Shown piece by piece: positions 43,281 to 62,710 of a DNA stretch of 64,000 nt. A program made the translations under genes and the position numbers. The DNA comes from Candidatus Altimarinota bacterium (lineage in GTDB: Bacteria > Patescibacteriota > Gracilibacteria > BD1-5 > UBA2023), in the NCBI GenBank assembly GCA_028689205.1, contig JAQTWP010000002.1:62001-126000 (forward strand), read 5' to 3'. How positions within the stretch are numbered: the stretch's first letter is position 1; every line of letters starts with the position of its first letter. The notes under the pieces were generated by a model that ran no database searches, was not told the DNA's origin, and was given only the letters and a program-made list of their open reading frames with translations.

Positions 43281-44792
43281 ATGGTATTTAATCCATATGA
43301 GAAAAAATCAGGTTTTGAATCCTTTGGATGATGAGAGGAGTCTCTTTGATGACTTCCAGAAAAGGAAAAAACACCTGAAGAAATAAAAGAATATCAAGAG
43401 AAATTAGAAAAAAGATCAAAAGAAGTTACAGAACATCAAAAATATGCCAATAATCTCACGGAATACCATTATAAACTTGAAGCAAAAGAAAATGAAGTGG
43501 TAAATGATGTTTATGATGCTCATTTAAAATTACCGGATTATATGTTTTGAGATAGTAGTTTTCTTGAAGCAAGAGCTGATATTAACACAATGTCGATTAA
43601 TCCAGAAAAAATAATACCACCACCTGAAAAACAGTTTAAAAATCCTGAAAGTATTTCAGAAAAAGAAAAAGTGAGAGAATATGCCGTATTATCAAACTTA
43701 TCTTATTCTAAGTTTAAAACAGTAAAATGAGAATTAACTATTGATGATGTTGAATTGGATCCTTTAAGTCATAGGGATCTTTTGAGACTTCTTAAAAAAG
43801 ATAAGCCTGAAAAAATGACTGCTGATGAAGAATATATCTATAAATATGTTCATAATCCAGAAAATAGAAATAATGTAAATTTTAATGAAAAAATTGAAGT
43901 TGCTTCTGATATAGAAAGAGTATTGAAATTATCAAATATCTATATTACTGACAAATATTTTGCTGATGTTTTACCTGGTCATAGATCCGTGTTAAGCGAT
44001 GTTGAAAATGCTGTTCTTTTACCTAATATCTCAAATTTGGAAAGAAGACTTCTGATACAGGCTTTAAAAGATATTAAATGACAGAAGATTATAGAAAATT
44101 GAAAGACCCTTGAATGAATGGGTGAAAAATATGAAATAAGGGATTATTTCCCTAATAAGAATGATATTGATAATTCATCTTTTTGAGCAGTATGTCTTAT
44201 AGAAAAAGGAACATGAAAAAAGATTTTTGCTATGAGATGAACTGATATTGAAGAATTTTGATGTCTTATAAGTGATAAGGATCTGGTATTTAAAAATGTT
44301 CCCGAAAAACAGACTATTGATATGATTAATTTCATAGAAAGAAATATTAAATTAGGAGAGAAATTCAAAATAACCTGACATAGTTTAGGTGGTGCATTAA
44401 GCCAAATTGCTAAGGCTATGTATAAAAATAATGTAATTGAAAATTATACTTTTAATTCACCTTGAGCTAAAAAATTAAATATAGATTCAAAATGGTGAGA
44501 TAAATCAGAAAAGTGAATTTTATTTGAAAAATTCAGAGAATTCTGATATAATAAAGAAAAACTGGAAACTTGAAAAAATGTTGTGAATGTAAAATGAGAA
44601 AAATGACCAAAACTCATTACTAATTTATGAGAAGATATATGAGAATATGAACTCAATCTTAAGGACTTAAAAGAACATGGTATAAAAGATTTGATTAATT
44701 ATATAGATAAATATTCTCAATTAAGTGAATTTATTAAGGTTAAACATGAAAAAAGTGATTCTAAAAAAGATAAAAATAAAAAAACAAATTAA
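43281..44792 (+). CDS. Lipase-like (class 3 / DUF2974-type) alpha/beta-hydrolase
   Basis: This 503-residue protein starts at the ATG at 43281 (MVFNPYEKKSGFESFGGG), chosen because a stop precedes it in frame. The N-terminal half is charged and helical (TPEEIKEYQEKLEKRSKEVT). The hydrolase part has IFAMRGTDIEEFG, which matches the oxyanion region, and the nucleophile elbow ITGHSLGGALSQ with Ser368, then NYTFNSPGAKKL. No signal peptide is seen, so the export route is unknown. It is followed 16 bases later by a 279-residue gene. The pair lies directly after a tRNA-derived element and could be an effector with a partner. Confidence 0.82.
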
Positions 44793-44808
44793 TTTATAAT
44801 AATAAAAT

Positions 44809-45648
44809 ATGTTGGAACCAATTGATTTACATAGAAACGAGGCACCTGCTATTATTGAAAAAGCACCTGCTGTTTCTGGTTCAGTAAAAACAAAAACTGA
44901 TGTTTTAACTCAATTAAATGGACTTAAAATTGATATTCCAGAAAGTATTTCTGAACAAGAGAAAAAAGTGAAAGCACTTGTCATAAAATGATTATTGGAA
45001 GACTGAGAAGATGCCTCTGAACCATTAAGTGTAAAATTCATATCAAAATGAGTTTTTGCCGTAAGGTGAAATTATAAAGATATCGATTTTATAGTTAATG
45101 AAAAATGAGAAAATATTATTAATATTTCTACACAAAGAGAAAGGGTTTTTGTTGAAAATTGAGATGTTTTAAAATTGATGTGATTGATTGAAAAATGAGA
45201 AAAATGAGAACATTTTTTATATAGAGAGGGTTCAGATGTTTCTATTAATCAAGATAGTTTAGAATATCTGAATATGTGGAAACAAATAGCTTTTGAAGCT
45301 GATATATTTTGAAAATTAATTAATTTAAAAAATAATATTAAGTTTTCAAGAGGTTTTCTTGAAAACTATATTGAAAGATGAAGTTTTAAGTTTGAAGATT
45401 TAGAATTGGTTAAAAGTAAGTGATTATTAGAAAATCCGAAAGATTATGAATATGCTATTCAAGAAATAAGAAAAAGACTTGTTTCTCAGTGTTGAGACAG
45501 AAGGCTTATTAAATTATGAATATGAATAAAAGAAAGTGATCTGAAGAAATATAAGGAAAATAAAGCTTATTGATTGACTGATGACTTGGTTTTAGAATGT
45601 TTTAGAGTATTGCCTGATAATATGATGGATTTAAGTGGTAAAAAATAA
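44809..45648 (+). CDS. Hypothetical protein paired with the lipase-like gene
   Basis: This 279-residue protein starts MLEPIDLHRNEAPAIIEKAP. The N-terminal 60 residues are linker-like and repeat the ending -IEKAPAV-. A beta-rich middle with FISKGVFAVRGNYKDIDFIV and a helical C-terminal part follow. No signal peptide or known motif is found. Because it directly follows the lipase-like gene, an immunity, adaptor or chaperone role is possible, but nothing in the sequence proves it. Confidence 0.7.
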
Positions 45649-45904: not shown

Positions 45905-47929
45905 ATGAAAAAAAATCCTAGTAGTAGTATAAATTCTATAAATAAATCTTTAAAATCTAAGTTAATAAAAACAGTAAAAGTTAAAGAATTTACAAAAAAT
46001 ATAGCTAAAACCATACTTTTAAATGAATATTATAAAAAAATTGAGTTATCTATAAATCAAATTAAGGAATTAAATGATATTTTAACTTGAAATGAATCAG
46101 CTAAGAATACAGAAATTAAATTGGATTTACTTTTTGAAGATGTTTTATTTAATTCTTCGATAGAAACTCAGGAACAATTCCAAATATTAAAAGCAAAAAA
46201 TCTTAAAAAAAGCACTAATAAAAATTACGAATATATGTATTCTTGAATTGAAAAATACACTATTCATGAAACAGAAGAAAATGATGAAGTTAACAAACTT
46301 ATTATATTTTATAATTGAATTATAAGAATAAAATGAAAATTAAAAGAAATGGAACTTTTAAAAAAATTCCCTGGGATAATTGATAGTGATGATATTGAAT
46401 ATATTTTTAAGAAAAAAATTAAATGAACCGAGTATGAAAAAATTTTTATTGATACATTCTGAAATAATTATGAATTAAATGAACTTAATAAAAAATTATT
46501 AGAATACTGAAATCTTGATTCCGAAGAAATAGATTTTGAAAATATAATAGAACCACCATCTATACCAAATGATTTTGAAAAAAAATGCCTATATAGAAAT
46601 TTATCACTTTGATTATCTGAATGTGAATCTCTTAGACTGGAATATGATAAGCTTAGCGTATCAATCTTTTTAGATAACTGAGATTATAACAAACTCATAA
46701 AAAATAACTCAAGTTGATCACATTATCCATGAACAGTTTTTAATGTAATAAGAGAATCTAAAGACACTAATCAAATGAATATTACATTAGAACATGAAAA
46801 AACACATAATATTTATCATGCATTCAACCCTGGACAATCTATTAAATGAATTGAATATTTCGATTCTAGTTTTAATAGAATTATAAGATTAATGCAATTG
46901 CAAGCTCCTGAAGTTATAATCCAAAGTGATTTTAAATTACTTAAAAAGAAAATTAGAAATTTTTTCTTAAGTAGTCAAGATGAAATAATTGCCAATTTTC
47001 ATGATTTAAAAAATGGGAAATTAGCAACAGCCCTATACCAATATACTGATATAATAAAGAAATTAAAATTCAGAAAAAATGAGTTATTAAAAGAAAAGAA
47101 GTTATCAAAATGAAATTCAGAAATTCTTGAACATATCAATGATATTCTTAATTGAATGTCAGAATATTTCGGTACGTTTTATAGGAGACTTGCTGATTTG
47201 GTTTATATATCCGAGCATGAATGATTACAGAAAGACTTATTTGCATCATTAATTCTATGGACACCATCAAAACATTATAAAATAGAGAAATACTTCAGAA
47301 TGAAAATTGGGAATACAAAATATGATTATTATTGTACAATCAGAACAATAATAAAGCCCGATTATTTCATAACTCCAAAGAAAAAAATAGTAGATCCATG
47401 TGAAAAATTATTAAATACTATTTTTGGAAATTGAAACTTAGAACATACTGAAAAAGAATTCGTAATAGCAAAACACAAGGATTATCTATCCCCTGTCAGA
47501 CTATGTGAATTTAATAATACAAAAAATATCCCTTCTTTTTTTGATCAAAGTAATAATATTTATAAAAAAATAGTAGAAACAGAATTTAGTGATATTTTTA
47601 TAAGATTAAAGATAAAATGAATTAGTGAATTTTTGAAGTATAAAAAAATATTATTAATATTCTTAGAAAAAGTCTGAATTAATAAAAAAGAATTAATAGA
47701 AATTGAAAATCAATTAATTTGAGAATATGATTTTTATATTTTCCAACATAAAAAAAGTGCTGAATTAATTAAAGATATGCTTGATAATTTACCAGAAAAA
47801 TACTCTGATTACTTGAATTATTCAATAAAAGAAACATACAATTTAAGAAAATGACATAAAGATAAAAAATCCATTGCTTTAATTAAAATTATTCTAAATC
47901 ATCCTAGATCAAAATGACTATTCAAATAA
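45905..47929 (+). CDS. Large protein with HEKTH zinc-protease-like motif
   Basis: This 674-residue charged protein begins MKKNPSSSINSINKSLKSK. Residues 297-301 are HEKTH in NITLEHEKTHNIYHAF, matching HExxH of zinc metalloproteases with helix-like surroundings; a conserved Glu or His third ligand could lie downstream but is not obvious. The rest is mainly helical with many Lys/Glu and no membrane segment. There are no recognisable full domains besides this motif. It is isolated in the accessory region and could be an effector or toxin protease. Confidence in the motif's function is low. Confidence 0.6.
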
Positions 47930-49492: not shown

Positions 49493-51997
49493 ATGAAAAC
49501 CTCAAACCCAAAATACCGCTATGGTTTCACATTAGTGGAATTAATAACAACCATAACAATACTTGCAGTAATAGCAATTGTAGGATTCACTTATGCTAAT
49601 AATTACAAGCTTTCTGAATATAATGTTCGTCGTAAGGCTGATATGGGATTTCTTAATGCTACGATGAATTCGTATATGGCAGTTAAGAAAATATATCCAA
49701 ATCCTGCTGGTAATAAGCAATATTATGATGAGTCTTGAGTATATGCTCATTCTAGTTCTTGAGCTTATTGAGTTAGTTGATTCATTACTAGTGAAGTTCT
49801 TGGTAAACAGTTCTTGTCAGTTATACCCAAAGATCCTTTGACTAATAATTTTTATGCCTATGCTAGGACACTTTGAGAAGTTCCTACTTATCAATTAGCT
49901 ACAGCTTTTAATACTAAGTGAACTTACAATGCTTACGTGAAATGAACTTATCCTGGAGATGATTTATCTTGAATTATCAAGGAATATAATTGACCTAATT
50001 TTGTACTTAATGGTTCTTCTAGATATCTTCCCTACAATACATCAGAAGTTAAGCTTGTTGGTAAGATAGTCTCTTATTCATGAGTAGTGAATGTAACTAG
50101 AGAATCAGTTGATGTTGGTACAGATACAGACCTAGTAGAGTGAGACAAGGTGGTAGTTAATTCTTGATGATTGGCTACAATTTATCTATCAGATGGAAGT
50201 GAATTAAAGCTCTGAAGTACAACTAAGAATTCTTTATTAGATATGAATGATCTTAAGTACAAGGAAGATAATAATCTTCTTACTCAAGTATCACTTAAAT
50301 TAGTTCTATGAGAGATATGGGTAAAAGCACCAGAAATGGAAACTTGATCAGAATTCACTATTGAAACATCTAATGCTGCAGCTTCGGTGAGATGAACTGT
50401 ATTCGGGATGACAACTGATTGAGCAAGTTGAACTGGAACAATTGAATTAATTGAATGAAAACTGGAATTGCAGAAAGTGAATTGAACAGAGTTAAGTTCT
50501 AATTTTAATGTATTGTCATCTGGTACACCTTGAGTGAATCTGATTGATTCTACAACTACTTGAGCATTAAGAAAAGAAACTATTGATTGAGTATCTAAGA
50601 CTATTATGGAAGCTCTTCCTGGGAATCCTATTAAGATAAGCTATACGGTTAGTGTTGATGATTGAACAAGTTCTTTAACTTCTTGATTTACTTGAACAAT
50701 TACTGAAGTTAAGATAAAAGAAGTTATGGAAGAACAAGTTGGTCTTAATGAATGATACCTACCTAAGTTAAGTTACTTGAATAAGACTTTGACTTGATTA
50801 TTATTGGGTATAGAGAATATGAAAGGTAATTATTATGAGGTTAAGTTATGAAGTTGATATACGTCTTCTGGATCAGTAGATTCTAGTTCATGAGTAATTA
50901 ATGTTGATATTAGTTTTAGTGGTGCTAATGAACATTTGAATCTTGCTGATGAGCTGAACTTGGTTTGGAGGATATGTAGTCTGAGTAATAGTTGAATTGA
51001 GAATAATATTTCAGTGGATTGAGAAGAGATTTATCCGAATCAGAGAATGATTAGTAATCTATTGTTCAGGAAGTATAATCCTACGATAAGTAGAAGTTTT
51101 GATGGTTCAAGGAATAATATAATTCAGAAATATAGCAATATTTGTTCTAGTTGGTCTACTCTTGGGATATCACCTAATCCTATATCATGAACTAAGGAGG
51201 ATATATATTGGGAAGTTGGTGATGAGGTTGTAGCGGATGTGGAGGTTGATAATAATAATTGATGTTTAGCTACTGAGTACATGTCAGAAATTACTGATGA
51301 ATGTGAAGATGAAGTTGATTGAATGAAGTTAGTTGGGTTTGCTGGGTTTGATAGTGTTGGGGATTTGGGAATGAGTATATGAAGTAATACAGTAAATAAA
51401 ATTACACCGATTCAATGAAATATAATTTGAAATACTGTTTCTTATAGTGCAGATATAACTAATGTAACTTCATATAATACTTGAAATTCATTCGTAACAA
51501 TGAACAATTGAACCAAATGAATATTCATTGACAATAACTGAACTGATGACTTACTCAAATATGATATTTCTTCGATATTATGAACAAATGCAACAGCTTC
51601 TTGATTTGCTATAGAGATGAGTGTGAGAGGTGGGGCTTTGAAGAGGAGTAGTGGAACTTATTATTTATATAATGTTTCTTTGTTAGATTGAAAAAAAATA
51701 TATCTTGAAAAATATAATTGAAATTTGATTTTATGATATTATTATTCTTCTTATTATAATAATCTAATTCTTATTAGTAATTCAAATTTTGATAATTTAG
51801 AAGATAATACATTTTATAAAATAAAAACTATTTTTAATTGAACAGAGTGGAAAATGGACATAGTTAATACTTCTATAAATTGATTATCAAATACTTGAAT
51901 AATTTCAAATCCAGCTGACATATATATATGATCAAAAGCTACTCAAGAAAATCAATGGAATGATATAATTGATTATTTAAAAATTTACAGATATTAA
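49493..51997 (+). CDS. Pilin-like surface protein fused to FecR-like and LamG-like domains
   Basis: This 834-residue protein has a type IV pilin/pseudopilin N-terminus: a short leader and the GFTLVELITTITILAVIAIV prepilin motif with Glu5 after the Gly cleavage site. After about 220 residues of pilin-like head comes a FecR-like domain (GDKVVVNSGGLATIYLSDG ... VSLKLVLGEIWVKAPEM ... ASVRGTVFGM). The C-terminal 200 residues look like a LamG/concanavalin-type jelly roll, ending IIDYLKIYRY. It is far longer than ordinary pilins. The two Fic genes follow directly, so surface binding and Fic activity may be linked. Confidence 0.85.
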
Positions 51998-52002
51998 TTC
52001 AA

Positions 52003-52665
52003 ATGAAAGAAAAAATATTAGAAAGTATTATTTATGCCATGAATCATTATCTTGAAGAATCTTTATGAAGAGTTTCTCTAGATAAACATGAGCAAATGAA
52101 AAAAATGTTTTTTATGCACATGGAACAAATAACAAATTATTGTATTAATAAATATATTAACAAATGAGAATTAAGTGAAGAATTTATTAAATGACTTCAT
52201 AAAATTATTTATCCGCCAGATTATAGACAATATATTACAAATAATAAATGAAAACAGGTGTTATATATGCAACCTTGAATTTACAAAACAATTAATAACA
52301 GTATTTTTAATTATGTATTAAATAAAGAAGTAGATTTTATAAAACCAGAATTAGTTAATATTAAAATGAAACAATTATTAATTAATTTTAATGAAAATAT
52401 AAAATTAGAAGAAGATAAATATGATGTAATATTAAATTTTTTATTAGATTTTGGTAAAATACATCCATTTTGAGATTGAAATTGAAGAATAATTACTATT
52501 TTAATTGATTTATTTTTAATACAATTTAATTTAGAACCATTAAATATAACACAATTGAAAGAAAAAGATATGAAATGATTTTATTATTCTATACAAAAAT
52601 CAAGGATTGAAAGAGATTTATTTTATTTAAAAGAATTTATTAGGAATGTATCAAGAAACAATTAA
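52003..52665 (+). CDS. Fic-domain protein with intact active-site motif
   Basis: This 220-residue protein has the Fic core motif HPFGDGNGR (His154 onward), which agrees with HxFx(D/E)GNGR. Fic enzymes use the His to transfer AMP or another nucleotide part to hydroxyl side chains of target proteins. Most glycines in the motif are TGA codons. It starts five bases after the pilin-FecR-LamG gene and its 3' end overlaps the next Fic-like gene by 20 bases. No obvious inhibitory (S/T)xxxE(G/N) helix was found. The target is unknown. Confidence 0.88.
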
Positions 52666-53278
52666 ACAAACATTATTACCAAGATTTAACCATCTGTCTT
52701 TGTGAAAATCTGATGAAATCATAGATAATATGCGAAATGGTTTTGAGGCTCATATAAGATTAATGAGTGATTATTTCAAGTCATATAATAATTTCCCAGA
52801 TAAATTAGATATGGATTTATTTGTATGATTTCATAAATTACTATATCCCACTTGATTCGAAATAAAAGCTATATGAAATGATTGAATTAGTCACATAATG
52901 TATCCTTGAGAATGGAGAAAACAATATTTTGTAAAACAAATTACAAATTTTACAAAAGTCGAAGAAATTGAAAAGGATTTTCAAAAAATAATAGATAATT
53001 TTAATAGTTTAGAAAACAAAACTAGAGAAGATATTTTAAGATTTTATCTTGATTTTGGTAAAGTTCATCCCTTTTGAGATAGTAATGGAACAGTTTCTGC
53101 TATAATCTGTGATATTTTATGTGTATATTATAATTTTAAACCTCTTGAATTATTAAAAATAAGATTTAATAAAAAAAATAATCTATTTTCTTTAATTTCT
53201 GAATATGAAAAAGATGATTCAAATGAAAATTTATCAAAAATACTTGTGTTAATTGATAAATTCAATGGAACGATATAA
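52646..53278 (+). CDS. Fic-like protein with degenerate motif
   Basis: This 210-residue paralogue of the previous protein has the motif HPFGDSNGT at residue 141: the second Gly of the loop is replaced by Ser and the terminal Arg by Thr. The Arg normally contacts the nucleotide phosphates, so the protein is probably catalytically altered or a regulator. Shared features include the YPPDYRQY/YPGEWRKQY-type segment and the overall helix pattern. It overlaps the first Fic gene by 20 bases, implying coupled translation and a possible pair. This is an inference from the layout. Confidence 0.8.
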
Positions 53279-56503: not shown

Positions 56504-57331
56504 ATGAATAATAAAAATATAGAAATAAAAAACATTTCTCCTGAAAAACTTGTAATAAAAAGATTACAAGAACTTTGAGCTTTAAAAGAAATTCCAGGTT
56601 TAAAAGTCAAAGATATATGAAAATGAATTGTTTTGGTTGAAAGAGAATGAAATGTTAAAAGATATTATAAAGTTTTAGATTGAAAAGTTGAGGTTATTTT
56701 TAATATTGCATATTTAAGAGATGATTTGTATTTTAAAAATTGAACTTATAAAGCTTGATATAGAGAAATAAAAGATTCAAAATGAGTTTATAACATGTAT
56801 TCTCTAAAAGATATAGATTTTGATACGTGAAATCCTAAAGTTTGAGTAAAACCAGTAGATATACATAGTCAAAAATATTTTGAAATTTGGATTAATATCA
56901 ATTTTTTTGAATCCAAGTTAATGACAGAATCATTTAAACTTGAGGATAAAGGATGATGATATACAAAAATGAGTGATGGTAAACTTGAAAGAAAAATTGA
57001 TGCTTGAGCTCTAAGAATAGCTGATTTAATAAGTTTAGTCGATGAAAAAAGAAAGGTTATTACAAAAGAACAGTTTAATAAATATTTACCAATTCTTCAA
57101 TCAATACTTCTTAGTCAGATTTGAGATTCAAGATTTGAAAAACTTTGAGAATCTATAAATGAAAGAGAAATTAAATTCTACGTAGATTATTGATATATTA
57201 CAAAAGATTTAGCTAGAGAATGTTACAGAAAACTTAGAGAATTAGAAGAGATTAAACAAAAAAAAGAGAAATGAGAAAAAGAAATTCATTCTAAAACTCA
57301 TTTTGAAACACAAGAAATTCAAACTGCTTAA
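56504..57331 (+). CDS. Hypothetical protein linked to the 921-residue gene
   Basis: This 275-residue soluble protein begins MNNKNIEIKNISPEKLVIKRL. It has a beta-rich N-terminal half (GIVLVEREGNVKRYYKVLDG) and a helical C-terminal half ending in charged coiled coil. It lies five bases after the stop of the 921-residue gene, so an operon is very likely and a partner role is possible. No domain is recognised. Confidence 0.7.
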
Positions 57332-60199: not shown

Positions 60200-62710
60200 T
60201 TATCTATTCAGAAAAATTGTCTTAACTATAACCCTAGAAGATTCTGCTCTTGTTATTCAATCATTGGGACGGAATTTTAATTCTCAATCAATAGTTTGTC
60301 ATCCGGCAATTCATAATTCTTTTGCTTTTTCGATATATTTTACCATCCATAGTCAATCTGCTGGAATATCTGTGAATTCTGTAACTATCGTGTCGCCTAG
60401 CTCAATTTTAGCTATGCTAAATAGCATTGCCAGAGCTTCGGCTCTTGATATGGAATCATTTGGTCTGAAAATAGTTTTTTTGGTTATAATATTTGATTCT
60501 GCATACTCTATTGATTGAAGTAATTTTAGCTTTTGTGGTCCGAGATTCGTAGTATCATATTTCACTCATGTTTTCTGGAATATGTAATCATTAAGATTAT
60601 TCACTGTTTCAGAATCCAAGATTCAATTGAGATTATTATTATATCAATTAGTATTAAGTATCTGTTGGATAAGAATTACGCTTGGATCAGTATTTCAAGT
60701 ATCAAGCATTTTTAATTCATATTTATCTCAGATAGTTGAGTAATTTCATTCTCAAGAATTTAAGTCAATTTCCTGTCATTTAATTCAGAATTCTTTTGCT
60801 TTCTCAACGTATTTTATCATCCAAGATCAATCGCTCGGAATATCTGAAAAAGTGGTTTGAGTTAAGTTTTCATCCGTTTGGATTCATAATGATTTCATAG
60901 TCATTGCCAAGAATTCTCATCTTGTGATTGGACTATTTGGTTTAAAAATATTTCAGACGTATCACTTTACAACTCACTTTAAGGCTAGATAAATTATATC
61001 TTTTTTTGCAAAAGAGCTATCAATATCTACGAACCATATTTTTTCTTTTAATGATTCTTGTTTTATTAATTCAATTCAAGTAAGAATATTCTTATAAAGT
61101 ATGTTAATATTTGTCTGGTTTTCTGTCGAATTATTTCATGCGTAATAATCATTCAATTTGAGAGCAAAAAGAGTGAAGCTATTAATTATTTTGTTATATT
61201 CCCTTACAAAATCAAGGTCGTAAGTTACAAAATAATCAATTCAATCAAAAGTAAGTTTTTTACCTAAAGAATCAATAAAAGCTAGAACTTTAGAATTAAT
61301 AATATTTCAAGTCAGATAACTAACTGAAGAGTTAAGATTATTAAAATATGTTTTATCTAATGTGCTTATGTTCAAATCCGCAATTGGAGATATATCCTGA
61401 TAATCAATATCTTCTGTAACTCATGAACTAGGTATATCTGTCCCCGGAATTGTACCCGAAGATGTTGTAGTTCATGTAGAGATTACAGTTCATGTAAAAG
61501 TAGCCCCAGTGTTTGTTGTTCCAGAATTCGTAATTATAGCCGTACAGACTTTATCATAGAAGTTTCCAGATAAATCTCAAGTTGGACAATAATCTATTGC
61601 TGGTAATGAAACTCATCCGCCTCATCCGCCTCCTCAAGATGGAGGAGTTACAGGAGCAGTTGTACAATTAACTCAGGTATAATTATCAGTACACGCTAGA
61701 GCAGTACAAGCTGGATATATTCAATAAGTTCAATGAGCAGGATTAACTCAACAACTAAAATTATAGATGTAAGTATATATTTTAGCATTCCCATATACAT
61801 CTGTAACTCTGACGTTCAGAGTGGTATTCGCGTTAATATTAATTCAAGAAGTATAAGCTATATATGTTCATCAAGTAGAGTAAGTTATAGTTCAACTTTC
61901 TGATAGATTAGACAATATTATTGTTTGAGAACTAGCGAAAGTTCATCCAGTAGAAGTTGAATTAGTAATTGTTGGTGGAGTTGTATCATTCTCGATAATA
62001 TTCTCATTATTAATAGTAATTCATCAGAAATTACCGCTTATTTGAGGAAGTATAGAGGTTCATATAGTTCAACCGCTAAAACTAATAGTCCACAGAGTTC
62101 CAGATCCAACTACCGAACCAGGTAATCAAGAGAAAGTCAAACCAGAAAAACTACTTGCAACCGTAGGTTGAGCTGTAGTAATCTGATATCAATCAATAAT
62201 TCAATCGTTATTCTGATCAAGAGAATTAGCCTTAAGTATAGTATTAGTTCAACTTACATTAACATTTATTGAATTAAGTAGAGTCGTAGCTGTTGGTGAA
62301 GTTCACAATAAATTAATTGTATGATTCCCCGAACTTAATACTTGGTATTTGGAATAGAATTCATAAATACAGTCCAAATCTGGCACAGTGAATTTGAATA
62401 AATTGCTAGAATATTGAATTGAAGTTGGATTACATGGTCAAGATGAAGGATTAGTAATTCATGAAAATCCAACTGGCAAATTAATTGAATAGGTATTAAT
62501 TCCACTTCAAGCTTTTGTCTGAACTATTGTTTCAAAATCAAGAGAAACTCAAGTACTTACATTAAAGGGTCAGTCCATAAAACTTGTTCAGGTAGAATAT
62601 GAACTTCAATCGCTGACTCTAGCATTAAAATTAGTAATATTAGCGAAAACACTACCAAATATTGCAGAAAAAAATGTAAGACCAAGAATTATTTTAAATG
62701 TATTTTTCAT
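60200..62710 (-). CDS. Secreted multidomain protein with SLH domains
   Basis: This 836-residue surface protein has a signal peptide (MKNTFKIILGLTFFSAIFGS), beta-rich N-terminal domains including a chitobiase-C-terminal-like unit (STGGTFASSQTIILSNLSESG then TITYSTGG), a Cys-containing section and a poly-Gly linker. The C-terminal half holds an SLH-type repeat (FKPNSPITRGEFLAMT ... SDIPSDGSWMIKYVEKAKEFGI), a peptidoglycan-binding-like section (VILIQQILNTNGYNN) and further SLH repeats (FRPNDSISRAEALAML, RPNDGITRAESSRVIV). SLH domains hold the protein to secondary cell-wall polymers. It is the last known gene of a surface operon. Confidence 0.9.

What the first reader, a model, noticed from the sequence alone, without database searches (positions are those of the whole stretch)
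49493..53278. Pilin-FecR-LamG fusion coupled with tandem Fic proteins
A single 834-residue protein joins a type IV pilin N-terminus with FecR-like and LamG-like domains. Five bases later a Fic enzyme begins, which overlaps a second Fic-like gene. I do not know such a set from the described systems. One idea is a pilus-borne adhesin-sensor that works together with AMP-transfer enzymes aimed at the host or a neighbour cell.
Basis: partly seen in the sequence, partly recalled or inferred. Interest (0 to 1): 0.82.

Follow-up and report, generated by a model that had tools for sequence, protein, structure and literature searches.

The report
Pilus-adhesin gene coupled to Fic enzymes
In a tiny, probably host-dependent Gracilibacteria species, a gene for a pilus protein with a sticky tip is followed directly by two enzyme genes of the Fic type, and the same pairing recurs in related species far more often than chance allows, pointing to an undescribed tool for acting on, or attaching to, other cells.

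Summary
Read with code 25 (TGA=Gly), 49493-51997 encodes an 834-aa type IV prepilin + FecR + C-terminal LamG-like jelly roll; Fic1 starts 5 bases later and overlaps Fic2 by 20 bases. The gene order is conserved. The pilin-FecR-X family is vertically inherited (54 of 353 genomes of the class) and usually stands alone. A private Fic clade (12 domains, 8 loci, 6 genomes of the window's order, none elsewhere in the class) lies downstream of such a gene in all 7 loci whose upstream side is visible. A ~180-aa multi-pass membrane protein found only 4 times in 353 genomes sits each time directly behind the pilin gene. Some cassettes fuse Fic with deaminase and methyltransferase domains. An unrelated Fic lies 5 bases behind another pilin-FecR-LamG gene, and in another family Rhs-type toxins cluster at pilin-FecR genes (7 of 26 within 5 kb vs 0.33 expected). 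Best reading: a pilus-tip adhesin with exchangeable enzyme cargo used on contacted host or rival cells. Fic1 may be active; Fic2 is degenerate. Delivery, target and chemistry are unproven. The 'FecR sensor' idea is not supported. No such system was found in the open literature searched.

The parts
49493..51997 (+). Gene A: prepilin - FecR - linker - LamG-like, 834 aa (code 25)
   Evidence: single TM helix at residues 14-32; leader ...YRYG|FTLVE
49493..50122 (+). Prepilin leader, long N-terminal helix (residues 14-65) and pilin head, about residues 1-210
   Evidence: N_methyl; profile hits to solved pilins; model
50144..50464 (+). FecR domain, residues 218-324
   Evidence: PF04773 7e-11; 26 of 27 family members
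51320..51994 (+). LamG-like jelly roll, residues about 610-834
52003..52665 (+). Fic1, 220 aa, flap PGIYK, motif HPFGDGNGRIIT (last Arg of the canonical motif missing); no inhibitory-helix motif
52462..52500 (+). Fic1 catalytic motif HPFGDGNGRIITI
52646..53278 (+). Fic2, 210 aa, flap PGEWR, degenerate motif HPFGDSNGT that is conserved in G020 and G018
53066..53104 (+). Fic2 motif HPFGDSNGTVSAI
43281..44792 (+). Tentative member of the wider island: class-3-lipase-like 503-aa protein; homologues lie beside Fic in G018:C3 and G072:C166
44809..45648 (+). Tentative: 279-aa family, follows the lipase-like gene; rare family (4 of 40 genomes), repeatedly beside the Fic cassettes
56504..57331 (+). Tentative: second, diverged member of the 279-aa family, downstream of the Fic genes

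Best explanation
A contact cassette. Gene A makes a minor pilin that the cell's type IV pilus machinery assembles; its FecR and LamG-like parts stick out and bind the surface of a host or neighbour cell. The co-transcribed cargo (Fic1/Fic2 here; elsewhere a small membrane protein, deaminase and methyltransferase domains) acts once contact is made, most likely as effectors that modify proteins or nucleotides of the bound cell. Fic1 would transfer a nucleotide-derived group to target hydroxyls; Fic2 would be a catalytically changed partner that binds or regulates. Shown: domains, operon-like layout, exclusive recurrent linkage, exchange of cargo on a conserved carrier. Inferred: pilus incorporation, adhesion, contact dependence. 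Not shown: delivery, target, chemistry.
For: Private Fic clade beside pilin-FecR genes in 7 of 7 visible loci, against about 0.5% per locus by chance. Membrane protein only at these loci, 4 of 4. Independent, unrelated Fic 5 bases behind a pilin-FecR-LamG gene in G058. Carrier tree follows taxonomy while Fic linkage changes 7 times, and Fic2 of G072 groups with G018 of another family: cargo is gained and exchanged, as in toxin or effector loci. Rhs proteins, two with toxin/peptidase C-termini (Ntox24, M15), cluster at pilin-FecR genes in family f34. Prepilin peptidase in the genome, PilC homologue in the window. Lipase-like and 279-aa genes gather at the same loci.
Against: Fic1 and Fic2 carry no TM segment or hydrophobic signal and no export route was identified. 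The four-domain fusion Fic2-deaminase-FicX-methyltransferase looks like one cytosolic pathway as much as a set of effectors. The Rhs linkage is in a different family and does not involve Fic. Fic2 and FicX motifs are degenerate. Most pilin-FecR genes have no cargo at all.
Confidence: 0.45

Rival explanations
1. Self-modification: the Fic enzymes (with deaminase, methyltransferase and the membrane protein where present) act inside the producing cell and modify or regulate the pilin-FecR protein or its assembly machine, e.g. by adding a nucleotide-derived group.
For: Strict same-strand order pilin, membrane protein, Fic, with the membrane protein 2-10 bases behind the pilin gene; all enzymes look cytosolic; multi-enzyme fusion in G018:C1 and deaminase-Fic1 fusion in G072 suggest one pathway.
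Against: Within genus g11 no residue of the pilin-FecR part tracks Fic linkage beyond what other splits of the same sequences give; G020 keeps Fic2 although its tip domain is Fib_succ_major, not LamG; pilin heads are outside while Fic is inside; the same pilin family works without Fic in most genomes.
Confidence: 0.3
2. A Fic toxin-antitoxin or phage-defence module that happens to lie behind a surface gene, with Fic2 as the inactive partner that restrains Fic1.
For: 20-base overlap of Fic1 and Fic2; PADLOC hits to the Fic candidate family PDC-S04 and, for the deaminase, to anti-phage dCTP deaminase, all far below full-length scores; the pilus is a common phage receptor (own knowledge).
Against: Fic1 occurs without Fic2 (G018:C3) and Fic2 without Fic1 (G020); the clade is never found away from pilin-FecR genes where this can be seen.
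Confidence: 0.13
3. Genomic hitch-hiking: unrelated genes on a variable island that inserts behind pilin-FecR genes, with no functional tie.
For: Cargo is patchy and exchanged between families.
Against: Operon-like spacing, same strand in every case, exclusivity of the clade and of the membrane protein, and an independent second Fic lineage at the same spot.
Confidence: 0.08

Closest known systems
Fic-domain effectors and chromosomal Fic enzymes (NmFic, SoFic, FICD, Bartonella Beps)
   Same: Fic fold, flap PGxYK, HPFxDGNGR in Fic1
   Different: Last motif Arg missing; no inhibitory helix motif; no delivery domain; tandem degenerate partner; fixed behind a pilin gene
Type IV pilus minor pilins with adhesive C-terminal domains
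   Same: Prepilin signal, long N-terminal helix, large C-terminal binding module
   Different: FecR domain in the middle; enzyme cargo directly downstream
FecR-type cell-surface signalling proteins
   Same: PF04773 domain
   Different: No sigma-factor neighbour, no cytosolic anti-sigma part; FecR lies outside on a pilin stalk; NCBIfam puts it nearest to leptospiral LipL45/Lsa33
Polymorphic toxin / Rhs systems
   Same: Adhesive surface protein plus exchangeable toxin-like enzyme genes; real Rhs genes sit at the same pilin-FecR family in f34
   Different: In the window the enzymes are separate proteins without a secreted carrier domain or a recognised immunity gene
FicT-FicA (VbhT-VbhA type) toxin-antitoxin and PADLOC PDC-S04
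   Same: Fic1 hit at 9e-15; two small overlapping genes
   Different: Partner is a second Fic-fold protein, not a helix antitoxin; not an obligate pair

Membership tests
Fic/DOC superfamily | Fic domain above Pfam gathering score | tested here: met
   Fic1 37.6 bits, Fic2 24.9 bits, cutoff 24; fold of Fic2
Canonical Fic AMP-transferase | HxFx(D/E)GNGRxxR | tested here: not met
   Fic1 has HPFGDGNGR but no final Arg; Fic2 HPFGDSNGT
Class I-III autoinhibited Fic | (S/T)xxxE(G/N) inhibitory helix in the protein or in a small partner | tested here: not met
   No motif in window Fic1 or Fic2 or in the membrane proteins
Type IV prepilin | G|FxxxE leader with hydrophobic helix, and a prepilin peptidase in the genome | tested here: met
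FecR-type transmembrane signal transducer | Partner ECF sigma gene next door and cytosolic anti-sigma part | tested here: not met
   Neighbours are a 328-aa protein without a significant Pfam hit and the Fic genes; the cytosolic part is a short leader. The genome was not searched for sigma factors elsewhere
LamG / concanavalin-like binding domain | Profile and fold match | tested here: met
   (family and model; not Pfam on the window sequence alone)
Polymorphic toxin system | Secreted carrier fused to a toxin domain, plus immunity gene | tested here: not met
   Fic proteins are separate, without a hydrophobic signal; no immunity gene identified
Fic toxin-antitoxin pair | Both partners always together | tested here: not met
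   Fic1 alone in G018:C3, Fic2 alone in G020
Fic effector | Transfer into another cell | not testable with these tools
   Needs experiment

The most novel reading that the evidence does not exclude
A previously undescribed class of contact-dependent weapon or host-manipulation device of Gracilibacteria: a pilus-tip adhesin (pilin-FecR-X) as a conserved, vertically inherited carrier with interchangeable enzyme cargo (paired active and degenerate Fic proteins, deaminase, methyltransferase, dedicated membrane protein), with Rhs toxins as the cargo of the same carrier in another family.
Probability: 0.3. Interest if true: 0.9.

Novelty: new variant of a known kind. Interest (0 to 1): 0.7.

Why it matters
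How Gracilibacteria and their kin act on the cells they live on is largely unknown; pili are thought to attach them (PMC11452946, PMC8080830), but enzymes tied to that contact were not named in the papers searched. This cassette gives defined candidates: an adhesin with exchangeable tips and a set of Fic, deaminase and methyltransferase enzymes that go with it. It would also widen what Fic proteins do, through a conserved degenerate motif (HPFGDSNGT) and Fic-deaminase fusions.

Tried and rejected
Search of the GTDB contig set with Fic1 alone found no relative; that method reaches close relatives only, so alignment searches of whole genomes replaced it. Viral contigs: only generic Fic proteins, no pilin-FecR, so a phage origin is not supported. 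Substrate idea: no pilin-FecR residue tracks Fic linkage in genus g11 beyond other splits. Toxin-antitoxin pair rejected as obligate. FecR sensor rejected (no partner, wrong topology). Literature: no open paper joins Gracilibacteria with pilin and FecR, or with type IV pili and Fic, nor Patescibacteria with Fic domain; the two papers that hold both Gracilibacteria and LamG were judged by title and abstract only and are on other subjects.

Full report
What is there. The window belongs to a 1.25-Mb genome (contig 15) that reads TGA as glycine. Gene A (49493-51997) starts with a classical prepilin leader (...YRYG|FTLVE), has one TM helix, a pilin head, a FecR domain (218-324), a poorly predicted linker and a C-terminal jelly roll (about 610-834). 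Pfam finds N_methyl and FecR; the LamG call rests on relatives (10 of 27 hit Laminin_G_3), on profile hits to neurexin and laminin chains and on the model. Fic1 begins 5 bases after gene A and Fic2 overlaps Fic1 by 20 bases. There is no room for separate promoters between the genes, so an operon is likely (inference).

The carrier. A profile of the pilin-FecR half finds strong relatives (E<=1e-30) in 54 of 353 genomes of the class: 41 of 77 in the window's order and 13 in one other family, f34. Named hits are mostly Candidatus Gracilibacteria genomes, plus one frame-broken relic in the acidobacterium Sulfidibacter corallicola. The tree of this half follows the taxonomy. Of the copies whose downstream side is visible, most stand alone before a convergent gene (36), some are tandem pairs (6), ten have another gene on the same strand and six have the cassette genes. 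One of those ten, in G058, proved on inspection to be an unrelated Fic gene. The C-terminal module is exchangeable: LamG in many, Fib_succ_major in G020, other ends in f34.

The cargo. Searching with an alignment of the linked Fic proteins gives a sharp gap: 12 domains at E<=6e-34, all in six genomes of the window's order, then generic Fic proteins from 7e-23. They lie in 8 loci. In five the complete carrier gene is upstream on the same strand (window, G018:C3, G018:C1, G020, G049:C7, the last with further genes between); in two the contig begins inside the LamG end of a carrier gene, directly upstream of the cassette (G010:C64, G072:C101); in one (G072:C166) the contig begins too close to tell. 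With one or two carriers per 1.1 Mb the chance per locus is about 0.5%. The domains form three clades: Fic1 with HPF(G/S)DGNGR, Fic2 with HPFGDSNGT or close forms, and FicX with HPFPDDNGK. Fic2's unusual motif is the same in the window, G020 and G018:C1, so it is kept and not simply decaying. In G018:C1 Fic2, a cytidine-deaminase domain, FicX and a methyltransferase form one 967-aa protein; in G072 the same kinds of domain appear as methyltransferase, Fic2 and a deaminase-Fic1 fusion; G010:C64 has a Fic2-FicX fusion. This deaminase occurs at E<=1e-10 only at these two loci in 77 genomes. A ~180-aa protein with several predicted TM segments occurs at just four places in 353 genomes, each directly behind a carrier gene; in three a Fic gene follows, in the fourth (G010:C21) the contig ends. 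The window lacks it.

Independent support. In G058 a different Fic protein (Pfam 4e-9, HPFVDGNRR) starts 5 bases behind a pilin-FecR-LamG gene. In f34, 7 of 26 Rhs-type hits lie within 5 kb of a carrier gene against 0.33 expected, in 5 of 9 genomes (neighbours in one cluster are not independent, so the per-genome figure, P about 4e-6, is the safer one). Two of these Rhs proteins end in Ntox24 or M15-peptidase domains. Linkage to Fic changes seven times on the carrier tree, counting two uncertain states (G010, G072) as linked and including G058, and Fic2 of G072 (family f2) groups inside those of f1: the cargo moves, the carrier stays.

Wider island. A lipase-like gene with a 279-aa partner lies 4-6 kb upstream of gene A; relatives of the pair, or of the partner alone, lie beside the cassettes in G018:C3, G018:C1 and both G072 loci and beside the window genome's separate SoFic-like gene on contig 14. 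The 279-aa family is rare (4 of 40 genomes). I regard this as suggestive only.

How it may work. Gene A should be processed by the prepilin peptidase (present) and built into a pilus; FecR and LamG-like parts would face outward and bind (inference). The canonical FecR role is unlikely, since that needs a cytosolic anti-sigma part and a sigma factor. Fic1 keeps the catalytic His and the GNGR anion hole but not the last Arg, which in known AMP-transferases holds the ATP gamma-phosphate and pairs with the inhibitory Glu (own knowledge); the inhibitory motif is missing too. So Fic1 may use another donor or be differently controlled. Fic2 has lost the anion hole and is more likely a binding or regulatory partner. 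Because cargo is exchanged on a fixed adhesin and true toxins gather at the same adhesin elsewhere, I favour effectors or toxins that act on a contacted cell (0.45) over modification of the cell's own pilus (0.3). The second remains serious: the enzymes look cytosolic, no export route was found, and the four-domain fusion looks like one pathway.

Limits. Genomes are mostly metagenome assemblies; contig ends cut several loci; gene calls outside the window are simple open-frame calls. G049's Fic1 is broken by one TAA. The carrier model has low confidence in its middle. The carrier tree was a quick search without bootstrap. Absence from the literature refers to the open-access library only.

Noticed in passing
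L106 3712-4458 (genome G053, contig 24): A Fic gene lies inside a type III CRISPR operon, between a CARF-type Cas_APE2256 gene and RAMP/Cas10 genes. A Fic protein as a type III CRISPR accessory would be worth a separate look.
   Followed up: partly
L137 2236-3330, L148 2250-3302, L141, L143, L150 (family f34): Short Rhs-type proteins, two with Ntox24 or M15-peptidase ends, cluster at pilin-FecR genes.
   Followed up: yes
L157 8001-9557 (Sulfidibacter corallicola M133, Acidobacteriota): A frame-broken pilin-FecR gene 39% identical to the Gracilibacteria family in another phylum: a possible transfer.
   Followed up: partly
L107 2779-6940 (window genome, contig 14): A separate SoFic-like Fic gene follows another lipase-like plus 279-aa-family gene pair, like the pair at window 43281-45648.
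   Followed up: partly
window 45905-47929: 674-aa protein with an HEKTH (HExxH) motif and only a sub-threshold DUF2268 protease match; no relative at the other cassette loci.
   Followed up: no
window 60200-62710: 836-aa protein with S-layer homology domains, a further surface protein near the cassette.
   Followed up: no
G049 contig 7, L073 10455-11190: The Fic1 of this species is interrupted by one in-frame TAA, a decayed copy or an assembly error.
   Followed up: partly
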